Assembly (NCBI GenBank): GCA_947499095.1
Contig: CANMMR010000001.1
Span: 62,001 to 126,000, forward strand
Direction of reading: 5' to 3'
DNA length: 64,000 nucleotides
From: an uncultured Erythrobacter sp.
GTDB lineage: Bacteria; Pseudomonadota; Alphaproteobacteria; Sphingomonadales; Sphingomonadaceae
The notes beneath the pieces are model-generated. The model had not been told where the DNA came from. It worked only from the letters and a program-made list of their open reading frames with translations, and made no database searches. Positions 1,724-43,771 of this stretch are shown in pieces. Made by a program: the position numbers and the translations under genes. Position 1 is the first letter of the stretch; each line of letters opens with the position of its first letter.

Positions 1724-1933
1724 TTGCTGCCACACAAAGTTTGCAGGAATCCGCCAGCTGACGGTTGAAGCGGGCTAACTCATTCTGTCGCGATGACCAT
1801 GCTCCACATGGGTGGCGGCTTTGCAGGCCTGTGGATTCACTGAGTACAAAAGCAGAACAAATTGTTGCCATCCGGGTCTCTCCATGCCATCATGTCATTT
1901 ATTGACCCAGATCGGGTCCGGCATGGAGGACGC

Positions 1934-3184
1934 ATGGGGACGCAGGAAAACAGCTTTGCTCAGGATTTTGCCAAGGCCGGTATCGAACCGGAGGACCTCG
2001 CAGGGGAGTTCGGTCAGTCGGTCCGTCAGATCAGGCGCTACATTGCGGGAGAATGCAGCGTCCCCAAACTGGCTGCGGAAAAGATGCGCGAGCTGGCAAG
2101 GGAACGCGCTCCGAAACCAGCTGTTGCCCCCGCTTTTCGCTTCATTGATCTGTTTGCCGGCATTGGGGGAATGCGCATCGGCTTTGAAGCAATCGGCGGC
2201 AAATGTGTTTTTACCAGCGAGTGGGATCGTTTTTCCCAGAAGACCTACCTTCTCAACTTCCCCGACGGCGATGATCATGTTTTCGCCGGTGATATCCGCC
2301 CTTACGGAGAAAATCCGTCCCTGATACCTGAGCATGACGTTCTGCTGGCAGGCTTTCCCTGTCAGCCATTCTCGCTGGCAGGCGTTTCAAAAAAGAACTC
2401 ACTGGGGCGGAAGCATGGCTTCGATTGCGAGGAGCAGGGCAATCTCTTTTTCGAGATAGCCCGCATAATCCGTCACCATCAACCGGCGGCGTTTCTGCTC
2501 GAGAATGTGAAGAACCTGAAGAGCCACGACAGGGGCCGGACCTTCGAGGTCATCAAGCATACGCTTACCAGGGAGCTTGGCTATCGGATCGAGACCCGGA
2601 TCATCAGCTCCGCACCCTTTGTGCCCCAGAAGCGGCAGCGCATCTTTATTGTCGGTTTCCGGGAGGACTCTGGCTTCAGCTTCGATGATTTCGATACATT
2701 CATCCCGCCGGAAGAGGACTGGCCAACCCTCGGTTCGATCCTGCAGTCGCACAACGAGATCGACCCGAAGTACACGCTCACTCCCAAGCTATGGAGCTAC
2801 CTGCAGGCATATCGCAAAAAGCATGAGAAGGCCGGAAACGGGTTCGGGTTTACCGCACACGGCCCGGGTGATGTCGCCCGGACCCTATCTGCCCGGTACC
2901 ACAAGGACGGCTCGGAGATCCTTATCGAACAGAAAGGGACGCGACCGCGTCGCCTGACGCCGACAGAATGCGCGAGACTGATGGGATTCGAGCGTAATGG
3001 CCGCGAATGGTTGATTCCGGTCTCTGACACGCAGGCTTATCGCCAGTTCGGCAATGCAGTTGTGGTACCTGTGATTGAGGCCATAGCTCGTACCATGCAG
3101 CCGGCGATCCTGCGCGCGGTGGGCAAGGATCCCCAGGTGGATAAAGCGGAGCCGGGGGAACGCGTCGAGGTTCCGATTGCCTGA
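1934..3184 (+). CDS. Dcm-like DNA (cytosine-5) methyltransferase
   Basis: Transfers a methyl group from SAM to C5 of cytosine in a specific DNA site. About 70 N-terminal residues form an HTH-like region ([12 protein letters not shown]). The catalytic domain follows: motif [17 protein letters not shown], motif [13 protein letters not shown] with the nucleophilic Cys, motif VI ENVKN, motif VIII QKRQR, and the motif IX-X region ending [11 protein letters not shown]. The match to E. coli Dcm is very strong from memory ([29 protein letters not shown]), so CCWGG is the likely target (inference). The start at 1934 has GGAGG just upstream; a TTG at 1862 or ATG at 1892 would also be in frame but lack a ribosome site. 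It overlaps vsr by 8 bp and pairs with the convergent restriction gene at 3626-4969. Confidence 0.93.
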
Positions 3185-3656
3185 TATAGTCAGTGCAGAA
3201 ACCCGCAGCCGGATGATGTCCGGGATCAGGGGCAAGGATACGGCGCCCGAGAAACTTATCCGTTCAGGCCTTCATCGCCTTGGCTACCGTTTCCGCCTGC
3301 ACAACCGGAAGATGCCTGGCAGCCCTGACATGGTATTCCGCTCCCGCAAGGCTGTGATCGAGGTGCGCGGGTGCTTCTGGCATGGCCATGACTGCCACCT
3401 TTTCCGCTGGCCGCGGTCACGTGAGGAGTTCTGGAGAGAAAAGATCTCGGGAAACATCGCCCGCGACAGACGCAATCTCCATGCACTTCTGGGGAGGGGA
3501 TGGCGCGTAGCTGAGGTCTGGGAATGCCAGTTGAAAGGGAAAGAAAAGCAGTCGCTCGATTGTATTCTGGAGCGCCTCACTGCATTTCTCGATGGCACTC
3601 AGAGGCGACTTGTTATCGGTAACAATCAAACCGTCACCACTTCCGAGGATGCATAG
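3177..3656 (+). CDS. vsr: Very short patch repair (Vsr) endonuclease
   Basis: Nicks DNA 5' of the T in T:G mismatches left by deamination of 5-methylcytosine, so it repairs mutations caused by the partner methyltransferase. Family hallmarks are visible: the N-terminal [16 protein letters not shown], then PDMVF with the catalytic Asp, and the zinc/active-site region [11 protein letters not shown]. At 159 aa it is close to the usual 140-160. Translation appears to begin at a TTG that overlaps the end of the dcm-like gene, which implies translational coupling. The 3' end overlaps the convergent restriction gene by 31 bp. A Vsr beside a Dcm-type enzyme is the expected arrangement. Confidence 0.93.
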
Positions 3657-4969
3657 AGCTCGCGCATTGCGTCGGGCAGTTGCCTCGTGTTTATTCGCCA
3701 CTGGGGCCGAACCTTTGCCCTGCCGTCGGCATAGATCGTATGAGCAGGGTCGAAAAAGACGATTCCGGACGCGATGCCGCGAAGCAGCCTGAATACATCG
3801 GTACCGGTCCCGGTAATCCAGCCCGGACCATATGCGTATTCGTACCCGCTGCTGGCCCCGATGCGTCGTCTGACATCGATGTAGAGTGCGTTGGCATGTT
3901 TGGCATTCCAGCAGTTCGCGAGCTTGTCGAGCGACCAGCCTGCAGCGACCTCACCCGTAGCAGGATCGAATAGCTCGACCCCGATCCGGCCGGAAGCTCG
4001 GAAACTGTCGATTTCACGATTATAGCCGACGACCCTCATGCCCAGCCCTGTGGCCTGACAGATCTCGCCGGCGCGGTGGACGCCTACAAACCGGAGAGAT
4101 CCATCATTTTTCTGCCCCGGCCTGCCGTAGCGATCCATGAAAGTGCGGAAAGGGTGATCGCCAGCATATCCGTAGTCCGCCGTTGGCGTCATCAGGCTGA
4201 TCCTGCTGCCGCTGAAGGACTTGATCTCGAACCCGTGAACGTCCGGCTTCTTGTCGCCGTTCGCTGTTACGCCAAGAAGCGCCTCAAGCGTATAACCTCC
4301 ACCCTGTGTTCCGTGGAACGGCTCGACACCACCCGCTTTCAGGATACGCGACCAGTGCCATCCCTGTCGCACAATTGCCGAGATTTCCCGGTGCAGGCGC
4401 TGGGCCGGATCCTCACCCATTCCCTTGTCGATGAGAAGGACCTGCAACACTGTGCTGGAAGGCACGAAGGGGAGGTCGGGGAAATCCCCCACCAATTGGT
4501 CTTCAAGTTCGGTGAGCACCAAACCGAGGACCTGGCCATCGCCCGCCGTACCCAGGATCAGAATGCGTCTGCAGTAATTGGCCTGGCTCTGCCGCCTGAG
4601 GGCATCAGGCGGATCATTGCAGTCCTTCAGGAATCCGGACATCCGGACTTCCGGGTACTGAAAGTAGTCGATGATTTTTGTGTGCGGAGCTGGATGGCGA
4701 GTGCCGGTCCGGTCCAGCCAGGCAAAGTCCAGCTGACCCTCGATAATAGGCTGACCAGCTTTCGACCTGCTCTTGGCCGTGCTGGTGCTCCCTTCGCGGA
4801 AGGAGAGACGCGCGGGAAACAGGTTGATCAGCCCCGGCAGCTCTCGGCCGAAGTAGATTTGGTTCTTTTCGTTGTCCTGCTTCGGACTCAGCTTCTTTAC
4901 GTAGGCGGTTCGGATACCTTCGCCACCCAGTAACTTCCGAAGCTGACTGATGCTGTTTATTCCTGACAC
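3626..4969 (-). CDS. MvaI/BcnI-family type II restriction endonuclease
   Basis: A monomeric-type restriction enzyme that would cut unmethylated sites protected by the adjacent methyltransferase. The C-terminal half carries the family signature GGGYTLEALLG, then KKPDVHGFEIKSFSG, which supplies the acidic residues and the Glu-X-Lys of the catalytic centre. MvaI cuts CCWGG and BcnI cuts CCSGG, so together with the Dcm-like partner I infer CCWGG. At 447 aa it is longer than MvaI itself; about 200 extra N-terminal residues form a separate region. It is transcribed toward vsr and overlaps its 3' end by 31 bp. No broken residue is evident in the catalytic motif, so the unit looks functional. Confidence 0.85.
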   Translation of the reverse strand: MSGINSISQLRKLLGGEGIRTAYVKKLSPKQDNEKNQIYFGRELPGLINLFPARLSFREGSTSTAKSRSKAGQPIIEGQLDFAWLDRTGTRHPAPHTKIIDYFQYPEVRMSGFLKDCNDPPDALRRQSQANYCRRILILGTAGDGQVLGLVLTELEDQLVGDFPDLPFVPSSTVLQVLLIDKGMGEDPAQRLHREISAIVRQGWHWSRILKAGGVEPFHGTQGGGYTLEALLGVTANGDKKPDVHGFEIKSFSGSRISLMTPTADYGYAGDHPFRTFMDRYGRPGQKNDGSLRFVGVHRAGEICQATGLGMRVVGYNREIDSFRASGRIGVELFDPATGEVAAGWSLDKLANCWNAKHANALYIDVRRRIGASSGYEYAYGPGWITGTGTDVFRLLRGIASGIVFFDPAHTIYADGRAKVRPQWRINTRQLPDAMRELYASSEVVTV

Positions 4970-40189: not shown

Positions 40190-40250
40190 TGCGGCAGGAT
40201 TAACGCCGAGTGGTTAGCAAAGCATGCCACCTTCGCTATCGCTTTGCGCG

Positions 40251-40835
40251 ATGGGTAAGCTTCTCCGCCTCGATCCAAAACGTCGCAAATCGCGCAAGGC
40301 CCGCAAGGTCCGGCCTGCGAAGTTCGGGCGTCGGCGGTCGGGGTGGATGGAGGCGTGGGTGGCGGTGCGGCCGTTCGTGCTGCTGATCGTGCTGGCGACG
40401 CTGTCCTACATATTCGCCCTGCCCGGGGTGGTCCCCGCGCCCGGTTTCCTGTCGAACGAGCCGCAGGTGATCGAGGGGCGCTTCACCCGCTGCGGGCGGG
40501 GTCGTGGCTATTACTGCGTGATCGATGGCGACACGTTCAAGATGGGGCAGACCGGCGTGCGCGTGGTCGGCATCGACACGGCGGAGCGGGATGCCGAGTG
40601 CCCGGCGGAGGCGGCGCAGGCCGAGGCCTCGACCCGCGCGCTGCAAGGCTGGCTCAACCGCGGCCCCTTCGAAATGACCGCCCGGCTGGACGATCCCACC
40701 GACCGCTACGGCCGGGCCCTGCGCACCCTCACCCGCATCCGCCCCGACGGCAGCGAGGACCGGCTGGCGGACTTCATGCGCACCGAAGGGGGCGCACGGG
40801 GCTATTGGGGCGGATGGAGAGGGGGGTGGTGTTAA
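40251..40835 (+). CDS. Membrane-anchored thermonuclease (SNase)-like protein
   Basis: 194 residues. A very basic N terminus (about 30 residues) and one transmembrane helix (VLLIVLATLSYIFALPGVV) precede an OB-fold nuclease domain with YCVIDGDTFKMGQTGVRVVG, IDTAERD, and DDPTDRYGRALR. Compared with staphylococcal nuclease, the Arg, Glu and second Arg positions are filled. Its stop codon overlaps the stop of the convergent NgoMIV-like gene by 3 bp, so the restriction-modification pair is inserted flush against it. Confidence 0.8.
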   Translation: MGKLLRLDPKRRKSRKARKVRPAKFGRRRSGWMEAWVAVRPFVLLIVLATLSYIFALPGVVPAPGFLSNEPQVIEGRFTRCGRGRGYYCVIDGDTFKMGQTGVRVVGIDTAERDAECPAEAAQAEASTRALQGWLNRGPFEMTARLDDPTDRYGRALRTLTRIRPDGSEDRLADFMRTEGGARGYWGGWRGGWC

Positions 40836-41680
40836 ATGACGAGATCAAGTGGAAGATCGGCAATGTCTCGAAGCCTTTTCCCAGCGATCATTGTTTTTAG
40901 TTGCTCTATCCGATCATCACCGCCGATTTCGGTCAAGGCATCGACTAATTCGGGGAGCGCAAAATGATAAACACAATCGAGATCTCCAGTCCCAAGTGCG
41001 AGAGAAGCAATCCGACTTGGCATCGGCTCTGCAGTCACGACCGAAATATGAGGCAGCCGCCCTTTACGATTGCGAACCAAATTGAGCCCCTCGGATCTTG
41101 CATTCTGAGCTCGGTCGCTCCGAAGGGTCCACGTGCAGCTTATCGAAGCATGGAGGATTGGCTGATCTTGGTTTGCAAGTCGAATGGTCGTTAGGCGTGC
41201 AACATCCTCATCAACCAACTTACCGGCCACATTGATCGCTTCATCCGTTTCGGGACGCCTACCGATTACAAGGTCAGGCTTGATGAGATAATCTGCACCG
41301 AGAGCTGTCGCCATCTCGGGGTATTTCGAGGCAAGCGCCTCTAGATCATCCAGATGAGAGTATTGGTCGAAGGATGCTATTAAGCCTCCCTTCTGAATGA
41401 AAAAGTCTCCTGGCCTAAGATGACCTGTTTTTTCGAAACATGCCCTTACAAAGTTGACGCAAGTTTCCTCAAAATTTGATCCTGCTGTTTGCCCGGGCAA
41501 TTTCAAGGCGGTCCGCGAGACGCCCAGTCTCTCCAGAACCGCTGAAGCTATCTTCCGACTGAGAACGCTTCCTTTATCTGCATTGCTAGGGACTCCATTG
41601 GCGTCCACTGTCAAAATTCCGTCAAGAAGACTAGAATGAAATTCTCGACGGGCCTCTGCGAAGAAAGCCAATTGCGTCAT
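40832..41680 (-). CDS. NgoMIV-family type II restriction endonuclease with substituted catalytic Lys (probably inactive)
   Basis: 282 residues (NgoMIV is about 286). Family signatures are GQTAGSNFEETCVNFV, HLRPGDFFI, KPDLVIGRRP, HASISC, RSDRAQNARSEGLN, RKGRLPHI and the GTGDLDCVYHFALPEL stretch. NgoMIV cuts GCCGGC using the PD-X46-K-X13-E pattern. Here PD and E are in place with exact spacing, but the Lys of SCK is Thr (codon ACG, 41132-41134). The enzyme is predicted not to cut, though it may still bind. Its start overlaps the methyltransferase stop by 4 bp. A longer frame to 41815 is not needed; the ATG at 41680 gives the family N terminus. Confidence 0.9.
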   Translation of the reverse strand: MTQLAFFAEARREFHSSLLDGILTVDANGVPSNADKGSVLSRKIASAVLERLGVSRTALKLPGQTAGSNFEETCVNFVRACFEKTGHLRPGDFFIQKGGLIASFDQYSHLDDLEALASKYPEMATALGADYLIKPDLVIGRRPETDEAINVAGKLVDEDVARLTTIRLANQDQPILHASISCTWTLRSDRAQNARSEGLNLVRNRKGRLPHISVVTAEPMPSRIASLALGTGDLDCVYHFALPELVDALTEIGGDDRIEQLKTMIAGKRLRDIADLPLDLVI

Positions 41681-42630
41681 GCTGCCGCCAAAGAGAAGGC
41701 ACGGTTCGCGCGTAACGCAACAGCCAAATTTCTGGCAACTGCACGAGCCACCGGCGGCGGAAAAGCGTTGCCGATTTGCCGGTATCTGGTCGTCTTCGTG
41801 CCGTAGAATTCCCAACTATCAGGAAACCCTTGCAGCCTTGCGGTCATTCTCAAGGTCAATCTCGGCACACCGACGAAGTCACGCTCTGGGGCGTCATTGG
41901 CCAGACTTTTGCCTTCGACGCCAAGTGTTGCCCATGCTTTCCTCGCACGAGTGGGACCAAGGTCGGGTCCGCCATGCTTCTTGGATCCACCCACCAAAGT
42001 CGGGGCAATTTCGTCGGCCCCTGCCACCCACCGTTCAAGACCGCGCCAGCCGTTCGCGCCCATCAAATCCTGCAAACATTGACCGACCGTTGGGGGGTTG
42101 TGTGGCTCGACATCGGGCCAATCAAACGCCTCAATCAGTTCCTTTCGAATGGCCACGATCACGACGCGCGGACGGAGCTGCGGCACACCAAAATCCGATG
42201 CATTGAGCAGTCTCCAATCGACGTAATAGCCCATCTTCGAAAGCTGCAATTTCAGATGCGCGCGGTAGTCGTCGAACACAGCGGTCAAGAACCCACGGAC
42301 GTTTTCTATCATCACGGCCTTTGGCCGAATTTCATCAATCAGCCGGAGCGCGGCAGGAAACAAGTTACGCTCATCCCGCTCGCCAAGTTGCTTACCAGCT
42401 ACGGAAAAAGGAGGACACGGCAAGCCTGCAGTCAACAGCTCGACGCCGCGAAACGGTCGCCCATCGAACTCAGCCATATCTGTCGCACGCACGTCCCATG
42501 CTGGTCGATTGAGCCGCAACGTCTTGGCGAAATCTGGCTCAATTTCGACAAGCGCCGCGTGACGGAAACCAGCTTGCTCTAGCCCGAGCGCCTGCCCACC
42601 TGCACCGGCGCAAAATTCTATAGACTGCAT
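41677..42630 (-). CDS. DNA (cytosine-5) methyltransferase, NgoMIV/NaeI-type (GCCGGC)
   Basis: 317 residues. All main C5-methyltransferase motifs are present: I EFCAGAGGQALGLEQAGF, IV AGLPCPPFSVAG with the nucleophilic Cys, VI MIENVRG, VIII GVPQLRPRVVIVAI, and IX-X with RLQGFPDSWEF and RYRQIGNAFPPPVA. The recognition region (GSKKHGGPDLGPTRARKAW) recalls GCCGGC enzymes. The gene heads a two-gene operon with the NgoMIV-like protein and probably remains active, so GCCGGC sites should be methylated. It lies 76 bp downstream of the nrdB stop. Confidence 0.9.
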   Translation of the reverse strand: MQSIEFCAGAGGQALGLEQAGFRHAALVEIEPDFAKTLRLNRPAWDVRATDMAEFDGRPFRGVELLTAGLPCPPFSVAGKQLGERDERNLFPAALRLIDEIRPKAVMIENVRGFLTAVFDDYRAHLKLQLSKMGYYVDWRLLNASDFGVPQLRPRVVIVAIRKELIEAFDWPDVEPHNPPTVGQCLQDLMGANGWRGLERWVAGADEIAPTLVGGSKKHGGPDLGPTRARKAWATLGVEGKSLANDAPERDFVGVPRLTLRMTARLQGFPDSWEFYGTKTTRYRQIGNAFPPPVARAVARNLAVALRANRAFSLAAA

Positions 42631-42706: not shown

Positions 42707-43771
42707 TCACTCCGCCGCCACGCTCCCAGCGGCCTCCTCGCCGAACAGGCCCGGGCCGTCTTCGCCGGCGGCCTCTTCCTCGTTCGCGGCCTTGGCCTTG
42801 TTGCGCTTGTCGAAGCTGGACCACACGGTGTTCCAGTCGCCCTTGGTCGCGCCCTTGGAATATTCGGTCGCGCGCTGTTCGAAGAAGTTGGCGTGCTCCA
42901 CGCCGTTGAGCAGCGGGGCGAGCCAGGGCAGCGGGTGGTCGTCCACCATGTAGATCGGCTGGAGGCCGAGCTGGCCCAGCCGCCAGTCCGCGATGTAGCG
43001 GATGTACTTCTTGATTTCCTTTGGCGTCATCCCGCTGACCGGGCCCATTTCGAAGGCGAGGTCGATGAAGTTGTCTTCCAGCCGCACCGACTTCTGGCAG
43101 ATGTCGATGATGTCTTCCTTCACCACCTTGGTGTAGCAATCGCGCTCGCGCACGAATTCGTGGAACAGGCGGATGATGCCTTCGCAATGCAGGCTCTCGT
43201 CGCGGACCGACCAGCTGACGATCTGGCCCATGCCCTTCATCTTGTTGAAGCGCGGGAAGTTCATCAGCATGGCGAAGCTGGCGAACAGCTGCATGCCTTC
43301 GGTAAAGCCGCCGAAGGCCGCCAGCGTGCGGGCGATATCCTCGTCCGTGTCGACGCCGAAGACCTGCAAATAATCGTGCTTGTCCTTCATTTCCTCATAT
43401 TCGAGGAAGGCGGAATATTCGCTTTCGGGCATGCCGATCGTGTCGAGCAGATGGCTGTAGGCCGCGATGTGCACCGTCTCCATGTTTGAGAAAGCGGTGA
43501 GCATCATCTTCACCTCGGTCGGCTTGAACACGCGGCCATACTTGTCGTGGTAGCAATCCTGCACTTCGACATCGGCCTGGGTGAAGAAGCGGAAGATCTG
43601 CGTGAGCAGGTTGCGCTCGTGCTCGGTGATCTTCTGCGCCCAGTCGCGGCAATCCTCGCCCAGGGGCACTTCCTCGGGCATCCAGTGGATCTGTTGCTGG
43701 CGTTTCCAGAAGTCGTAGGCCCACGGATATTCGAAGGGCTTGTAGGTCTTTCTGGCTTCGAGCAACGACAT
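42707..43771 (-). CDS. nrdB: Ribonucleoside-diphosphate reductase subunit beta
   Basis: Diiron/tyrosyl-radical subunit of class Ia ribonucleotide reductase. 354 aa. Iron ligands are visible in the helices EHERNLLTQIFRFFTQADVEV and MAYSHLLDTIGMPE-type contexts (NMETVHIAAYSHL), and in DESLHCEGIIRLFHEFVRER. The N terminus MSLLEARKTYKPFEYPWAYD is typical of this group. The partner nrdA lies 2.4 kb to the right on the same strand, with unrelated plus-strand genes between. Confidence 0.95.
   Translation of the reverse strand: MSLLEARKTYKPFEYPWAYDFWKRQQQIHWMPEEVPLGEDCRDWAQKITEHERNLLTQIFRFFTQADVEVQDCYHDKYGRVFKPTEVKMMLTAFSNMETVHIAAYSHLLDTIGMPESEYSAFLEYEEMKDKHDYLQVFGVDTDEDIARTLAAFGGFTEGMQLFASFAMLMNFPRFNKMKGMGQIVSWSVRDESLHCEGIIRLFHEFVRERDCYTKVVKEDIIDICQKSVRLEDNFIDLAFEMGPVSGMTPKEIKKYIRYIADWRLGQLGLQPIYMVDDHPLPWLAPLLNGVEHANFFEQRATEYSKGATKGDWNTVWSSFDKRNKAKAANEEEAAGEDGPGLFGEEAAGSVAAE

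What the first reader, a model, noticed from the sequence alone, without database searches (positions are those of the whole stretch)
40832..41680. NgoMIV-type restriction enzyme with its catalytic lysine changed to threonine
The family pattern PD-X46-K-X13-E aligns without gaps: Asp in KPDLV, then 47 positions later the SCK triplet reads SCT, then Glu 14 positions after that. All other signature blocks are intact and the methyltransferase partner looks complete. A single A-to-C change (AAG to ACG) would explain it. So this pair may be a methylation-only or bind-only remnant held in place by the methyltransferase.
Basis: partly seen in the sequence, partly recalled or inferred. Interest (0 to 1): 0.8.

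Follow-up and report, generated by a model that had tools for sequence, protein, structure and literature searches.

The report
Restriction enzyme lacking its catalytic lysine
A bacterium carries a DNA-cutting defence enzyme that looks intact except for one catalytic amino acid that the relatives examined keep, so it probably no longer cuts DNA while its partner enzyme still marks DNA; this is a clear but fairly ordinary case of a defence system that has lost its weapon.

Summary
Window 40832-41680 (minus) encodes a 282-aa NgoMIV-type endonuclease (PF09015, E 3e-107; 1fiu, E 4.7e-88) whose residue 183, equivalent to NgoMIV Lys187, is Thr. Lysine stands there in 74 of 74 distinct relatives with a residue at that position (78 examined; 4 gapped or truncated). 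Of 63 columns conserved at 95% or more, 62 are kept, 183 being the exception. The overlapping methyltransferase keeps 130 of 130 conserved columns. In two relatives of the CCGG family, mutating this lysine to Ala nearly stops cleavage while DNA is still bound (PfoI; SgrAI). Most likely the pair is now methylation-only, by a recent loss. Residual activity or a sequencing error is not excluded. Sister species keep the same methyltransferase but pair it with another NgoMIV-type enzyme or with the NaeI family, so GCCGGC-cutting competitors probably circulate in the genus. A protective role for methylation alone is plausible but untested. 'Held in place by the methyltransferase' was not tested.

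The parts
40832..41680 (-). NgoMIV-type restriction endonuclease gene (282 aa), Thr at the catalytic lysine position
   Evidence: PF09015 E 3e-107; 1fiu_A E 4.7e-88; AlphaFold model mean pLDDT 87.6, Foldseek to 1fiu TM 0.95, rmsd 1.5
41132..41134 (-). codon 183, ACG (Thr), where 74 of 74 comparable relatives have Lys
41111..41122 (-). codons 187-190, RSDR recognition motif (NgoMIV 191-194), intact
   Evidence: role of the motif from a PMC6326814 passage
41273..41275 (-). codon 136, catalytic Asp (NgoMIV D140), intact
41090..41092 (-). codon 197, Glu (NgoMIV E201), intact
41468..41470 (-). codon 71, Glu (NgoMIV E70), intact
41677..42630 (-). C5-cytosine methyltransferase gene (317 aa), partner; its stop overlaps the endonuclease start (ATGA)
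   Evidence: PF00145 E 1.3e-68; 130 of 130 conserved columns kept, overlap seen
42707..43771 (-). flanking gene: ribonucleotide reductase small chain (nrdB), the shared edge of the swap site
   Evidence: PF00268 E 1.3e-76; 97-98% identical DNA in G379, G797, G800 and G142, which have other inserts beside it
40224..40835 (+). flanking gene on the other side; no Pfam match at E 0.001
   Evidence: 92-94% identical protein in G379, G800 and G142 at the far side of other inserts

Best explanation
This is a type II restriction-modification pair, probably of GCCGGC specificity, in which the endonuclease has recently lost its catalytic lysine. Shown here: Thr at the lysine position, the other signature residues kept, methyltransferase intact in sequence. 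Inferred: the protein still folds, probably still binds unmethylated GCCGGC as same-lysine mutants of relatives bind their sites, but does not cut at a useful rate. The methyltransferase would go on methylating GCCGGC, so the cell behaves as if it had a solitary methyltransferase. Such methylation would protect the cell from GCCGGC-cutting systems (NgoMIV and NaeI types) that sister species carry with the same methyltransferase. That protective role is a hypothesis, not shown.
For: Lys in 74 of 74 comparable distinct relatives, Thr only here; 62 of 63 conserved columns kept, the one exception being residue 183. No unique Lys or His elsewhere that might replace it: of 8 residues unique to the window protein against 71 relatives only Arg257 is basic. 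The model superposes on NgoMIV 1fiu. The methyltransferase keeps 130 of 130 conserved columns in 59 relatives. PfoI K187A: nearly no cleavage, binding like wild type; SgrAI K242A: bound DNA with Mg, no evidence of cleavage; BbvCI lysine mutants abolish cleavage; Lys187 of NgoMIV described as coordinating the metals. The same methyltransferase paired with NaeI-family enzymes in three genus members (one of them matched to NaeI 1ev7) supports the GCCGGC target. No NaeI-family gene was matched in the window's own genome (none of its control genomes rang, though the same Pfam model did match the genus members).
Against: No cleavage, binding or methylation measurement exists. Some active PD-(D/E)XK enzymes have E, Q or N at this position and Vsr has an unorthodox site, so loss of Lys is not proof of inactivity. 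The SgrAI K242A protein was less soluble and was used with a second change to improve that, so the loss may also affect folding. The base was not checked in reads. GCCGGC counts in the window say nothing clear: 44 seen against 66.9 expected; CCGCGG, GGCGCC and CGGCCG are as low or lower, while GCGCGC, GGCCGG and GAGCTC are near expectation.
Confidence: 0.72

Rival explanations
1. The enzyme still cuts, slowly or with altered metal use, because Thr or a water can stand in for the lysine, as E, Q or N does in some other families.
For: Lys is replaced by E in BamHI, Q in BglII and NotI, N in MspI (PMC4081073 passage); the window protein keeps the 62 other conserved columns.
Against: Among the relatives examined Lys is invariant (74 of 74) and Ala at this site in PfoI and SgrAI gives nearly no cleavage or none seen. 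No Thr homolog group was found. Ala mutants are not Thr mutants.
Confidence: 0.13
2. A sequencing, assembly or culture artefact: the natural strain has Lys and an active pair.
For: A single base in one draft assembly of 25 contigs; the only deviation among 63 conserved columns.
Against: Consensus errors at a given base are rare (general knowledge); the assembly is given as 100% complete with 0.86% contamination and the contig is 607,586 bases. No reads or second strain could be examined here.
Confidence: 0.1
3. A selected bind-only protein: the dead tetramer holds pairs of unmethylated GCCGGC sites and acts as a roadblock to incoming DNA or as a regulator.
For: Recognition motif and predicted fold intact; same-lysine mutants still bind DNA.
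Against: Intactness is equally expected from a recent loss: zero changes in about 140 nonsynonymous sites of conserved codons allows up to about 0.02 neutral changes per site since the loss. No sister strain with the same state was found to show persistence.
Confidence: 0.05

Closest known systems
NgoMIV restriction endonuclease (PF09015; PDB 1fiu, 4abt)
   Same: Full-length homology (52% identity in the Foldseek alignment), same predicted fold, E70, D140, S185, E201 and RSDR equivalents kept
   Different: Thr in place of Lys187
Solitary GCCGGC-type methyltransferases, e.g. Caulobacter ScmA (YGCCGGCR; PMC12907096, passages)
   Same: Predicted outcome: methylation of a GCCGGC-containing site in an alphaproteobacterium-like genome without a working cognate endonuclease, with a Vsr gene also present. 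That the window's class is Alphaproteobacteria is my inference, not from a call
   Different: Here the endonuclease gene is still present and full length; whether the two methyltransferases are orthologs was not tested
NaeI-type R-M pairs (PF09126) in the same genus
   Same: Methyltransferase 77-85% identical, in two of three cases beside nrdB
   Different: Endonuclease of another family, with a VDVK motif present
Engineered lysine mutants PfoI K187A and SgrAI K242A
   Same: Same catalytic lysine removed in a CCGG-family enzyme
   Different: Made in the laboratory, Ala rather than Thr, other target sites; the SgrAI protein carried a second change for solubility

Membership tests
NgoMIV family (PF09015) | Profile match over the curated cut-off | tested here: met
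   358.4 bits against 23.2, residues 14-282
NgoMIV family (PF09015) | Active-site residues other than the lysine: E70, D140, S185, E201 | tested here: met
   E71, D136, S181, E197 present and unvaried in the relatives that have a residue there; E70 and the lysine are named in the PfoI paper, the roles of S185 and E201 are recalled
NgoMIV family (PF09015) | Catalytic lysine K187 | tested here: not met
   Thr183; Lys in 74 of 74 comparable relatives. So: a relative by descent, not shown to be an active NgoMIV enzyme
NgoMIV family (PF09015) | RSDR motif that reads the inner CCGG | tested here: met
   Residues 187-190 RSDR; role from a PMC6326814 passage
NgoMIV family (PF09015) | Tetramer that cuts two G/CCGGC sites | not testable with these tools
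   Needs purified protein
Type II restriction-modification system | Adjacent cognate methyltransferase | tested here: met
   PF00145 gene with ATGA overlap, 130 of 130 conserved columns kept
Type II restriction-modification system | Active restriction of unmethylated DNA | not testable with these tools
   Predicted lost from the lysine change
Solitary (orphan) methyltransferase | No endonuclease gene next to the methyltransferase | tested here: not met
   Full-length endonuclease gene present; it may work like one but is not one by definition

The most novel reading that the evidence does not exclude
The loss is selected rather than accidental: at a swap site where the same methyltransferase is repeatedly re-armed with NgoMIV- or NaeI-type endonucleases, this lineage has disarmed the endonuclease and keeps methylation alone, as a standing protection against GCCGGC-cutting systems of its sister species, with the dead endonuclease perhaps kept as a GCCGGC-binding roadblock.
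Probability: 0.1. Interest if true: 0.6.

Novelty: new variant of a known kind. Interest (0 to 1): 0.36.

Why it matters
If true, it catches a restriction-modification pair just after disarmament, by one change in the active site and before any visible decay, which shows one way in which solitary methyltransferases can arise. The sister species with the same methyltransferase and two different families of GCCGGC endonuclease give a natural set for testing whether methylation alone protects against invading systems of the same specificity.

Tried and rejected
Compensating lysine elsewhere: the 8 residues unique to the window protein (75, 123, 137, 168, 173, 183, 257, 260) include no Lys or His; only Arg257 is basic. 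Rejected as a likely rescue, though distances in the model could not be measured.

Relaxed selection: no excess of unusual residues. The window deviates at 1 column conserved at 97% or more; of the 72 sequences compared, window included, 56 deviate at none and 16 at 1 to 7. The R tree flags no long branch; the window's is 0.44 against a median of 0.33. So long decay is rejected. dN/dS was not attempted because the nearest relatives found are about 65-67% identical.

GCCGGC avoidance as a trace of past restriction: not informative in this window.

A second copy: one PF09015 match in the genome, this one; no PF09126 match (no control rang); two PF00145 matches, this one and one at window 2135-3100.

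Literature: ten searches, for NgoMIV with K187, Lys187 or D140, inactive endonucleases with active methyltransferases, NaeI/NgoMIV isoschizomers or swaps, solitary or anti-addiction methyltransferases, Vsr Thr63 and SgrAI K242A. In these listings I saw no report of a natural Thr at this position or of one methyltransferase paired with both NgoMIV and NaeI. I saw titles and starts of abstracts there, and passages of eight papers (those of PMC12707154 are general remarks on orphan methyltransferases). The library lacks most subscription journals and REBASE was not searched, so this is weak evidence.

Full report
What is there. The window holds, on the minus strand, a methyltransferase gene (41677-42630, 317 aa) followed by an endonuclease gene (40832-41680, 282 aa), joined by an ATGA overlap. 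The endonuclease matches Pfam PF09015 over nearly its whole length (E 3e-107), and among solved structures its sequence matches NgoMIV (1fiu, E 4.7e-88); the only other listed hit, at E 0.2, I take as chance. An AlphaFold model from 32 aligned sequences (mean pLDDT 87.6, pTM 0.88) superposes on 1fiu with TM 0.95 and rmsd 1.5; the next matches are other CCGG-family enzymes with much lower scores. Alignment with NgoMIV puts E71, D136, S181, T183 and E197 on E70, D140, S185, K187 and E201 (residue numbers counted from the printed alignment).

Is it more than chance. I collected relatives in three ways: peptide-pattern scans of genome and viral contigs (60 and 4 loci); PF09015 searches of genome samples (6 of 396 in the order, 3 of 385 in the class, 4 of 398 in the phylum and 4 of 397 in the family had a match, each count including the window's own genome, and the samples overlap); and tblastn of plasmids (16 records) and phages (1 record), of which I fetched 7 of the 16 plasmid records and the phage record. 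In all, 87 loci matched, 79 distinct sequences, 78 of them not the window's. At column 183, 74 have Lys and 4 have no residue (L051 gapped, L059, L060 and L061 truncated); none has Thr. The patterns lay outside the SCK stretch. Rows are not independent, since many are close gut Bacillota; but the same Lys holds in Magnetospirillum, Streptomyces, Chlorobi, Spirochaetes and Myxococcales rows. Of 63 columns conserved at 95% or more in the 74 relatives with over 200 residues, the window keeps 62, the exception being 183 (an earlier pass with 70 relatives gave 64 of 65).

What the change should do. In PfoI, a member of the same CCGG family, K187A shows nearly no cleavage while DNA binding stays like wild type (PMC6344858, passages). 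In SgrAI, K242A bound its site with Mg and showed no evidence of cleavage; that protein was less soluble and carried a second change for solubility (PMC11367474, passages). In BbvCI, lysine mutants abolish cleavage (PMC6326814, passages). Lys187 of NgoMIV is described as coordinating the metals (PMC5758106, passage). Against this, some active enzymes of the superfamily have E, Q or N there (PMC4081073, passage; PMC1189080, passages), and Vsr has an unorthodox site; that Vsr has a threonine near this place is recalled, not from a call. No new Lys or His in the window protein offers itself as a replacement. I therefore put inactivity well above residual activity, without calling it shown.

How old is it. 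If the protein had been free of constraint since the loss, changes should appear at the 62 other conserved codons; none has. With about 140 nonsynonymous sites there, zero changes gives a 95% upper bound of about 0.02 neutral changes per site. The branch of the window in the R tree is 0.44 against a median of 0.33 and is not flagged as long. So the loss is recent, or the protein is still under selection for something other than cutting; the data do not separate these. The gene itself looks foreign: GC3 is 0.456, against 0.588 for the methyltransferase and 0.81-0.88 for the three neighbouring genes measured.

The methyltransferase. It belongs to the C5-cytosine family (PF00145) and keeps 130 of 130 columns conserved at 95% or more in 59 distinct relatives; pieces under 50% identity and sequences of 240 residues or fewer were dropped before this count. 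PADLOC's best label for it is DruM2, which I take as model overlap; I did not look for Druantia partners. The target GCCGGC is inferred from the endonuclease family and from the partners below, not measured.

The surroundings. In the window the pair sits between nrdB (PF00268) and a gene without a Pfam match. Of 60 genus genomes searched by DNA, five including the window's own show this methyltransferase (a DNA search would miss distant ones): in four it lies beside nrdB (own, G191, G785, G134), and in G795 it lies on a separate 8.1-kb contig. Their endonucleases differ. G191 has an NgoMIV-type enzyme with Lys, 45% identical. G785, G134 and G795 have enzymes of the NaeI family (PF09126; G134's matches NaeI 1ev7 with E 1.7e-35). 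That NaeI cuts GCCGGC is recalled; PMC4081073 places NaeI and NgoMIV in different evolutionary branches of the superfamily (passage). The trees agree with swapping: in the methyltransferase tree (25 of 34 named loci gave a row) the window groups with G191 (93/87), then with G785 (94/87) and G134 (100/97); in the endonuclease tree (30 of 34) the window groups with G682, G193, G020 and a Sulfitobacter plasmid (100/98), and G191 lies elsewhere, though its exact place there is weakly supported (86/18). Two rows of the methyltransferase tree, L066 and L068, are long and probably not orthologous; they do not fall in the window's group.

I opened ten of the 60 genomes with longer stretches, nine of them at nrdB. 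The four nearest by nrdB among them (about 99% identical protein) have other inserts beside it: MT-A70 methylase with a BglII-type enzyme (G379, G797), an Abi_2 protein (G800) and an FRG-domain protein (G142). The gene on the window's far side is also on the far side in these four and in G779 and G786, but it was not seen in the stretches of G191 and G785, and G134 has only a 46% match farther off. So nrdB is the shared edge; the other edge is shared by only part of the genus. The other genus loci were checked only for the four window proteins.

Mechanism proposed. The pair is disarmed: methylation continues, cutting does not. A bacterium in that state has a precedent in Caulobacter, whose solitary methyltransferase ScmA methylates YGCCGGCR; wild type outcompetes the mutant in a way that depends on a Vsr-like protein, and the authors report no other obvious role under standard conditions (PMC12907096, passages). 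The window genome also has one Vsr gene, in another cassette at window 3177-3656. Since sister species carry probable GCCGGC-cutting systems with this methyltransferase, methylation alone could protect against them; this is inference. A selected bind-only role of the dead endonuclease is possible but has no evidence beyond intactness.

Verdict. Point loss of an endonuclease in an R-M pair is not a new kind of event, so I score moderate interest; the partner swapping around a shared methyltransferase is the more useful part.

Noticed in passing
window 40832-42630, beside nrdB (42707-43771); loci L103-L111: The place beside nrdB is a swap site for small defence-like inserts in the genus: NgoMIV pair, NaeI pair, MT-A70 with BglII-type enzyme, Abi_2, FRG domain, SocA/Panacea-like.
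   Followed up: partly
L107, L108, L112 (G785, G134, G795): The same methyltransferase (77-85% identical) is paired with NaeI-family endonucleases; G795 adds a Vsr gene.
   Followed up: partly
window 1862-4969: A second C5-methyltransferase, a Vsr gene and an MvaI/BcnI-type endonuclease (PF15515 E 3.9e-24; R.MvaI only E 0.0061) form another likely R-M cassette.
   Followed up: partly
L118, L119 (plasmids pNOR-2000, pMG16): NgoMIV-type endonuclease genes with the lysine but with no methyltransferase among the annotated genes shown beside them; the plasmid gene tables are incomplete.
   Followed up: no
window 40832-41680: GC3 of the endonuclease gene is 0.456, far below neighbours (0.81-0.88) and below its methyltransferase (0.588); endonuclease genes in G191 and G785 are likewise below their methyltransferases, in G134 about equal.
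   Followed up: partly
L052 6001-6866: The relative in an Akkermansia metagenome-assembled genome matches in two pieces, so that copy appears frame-broken.
   Followed up: no
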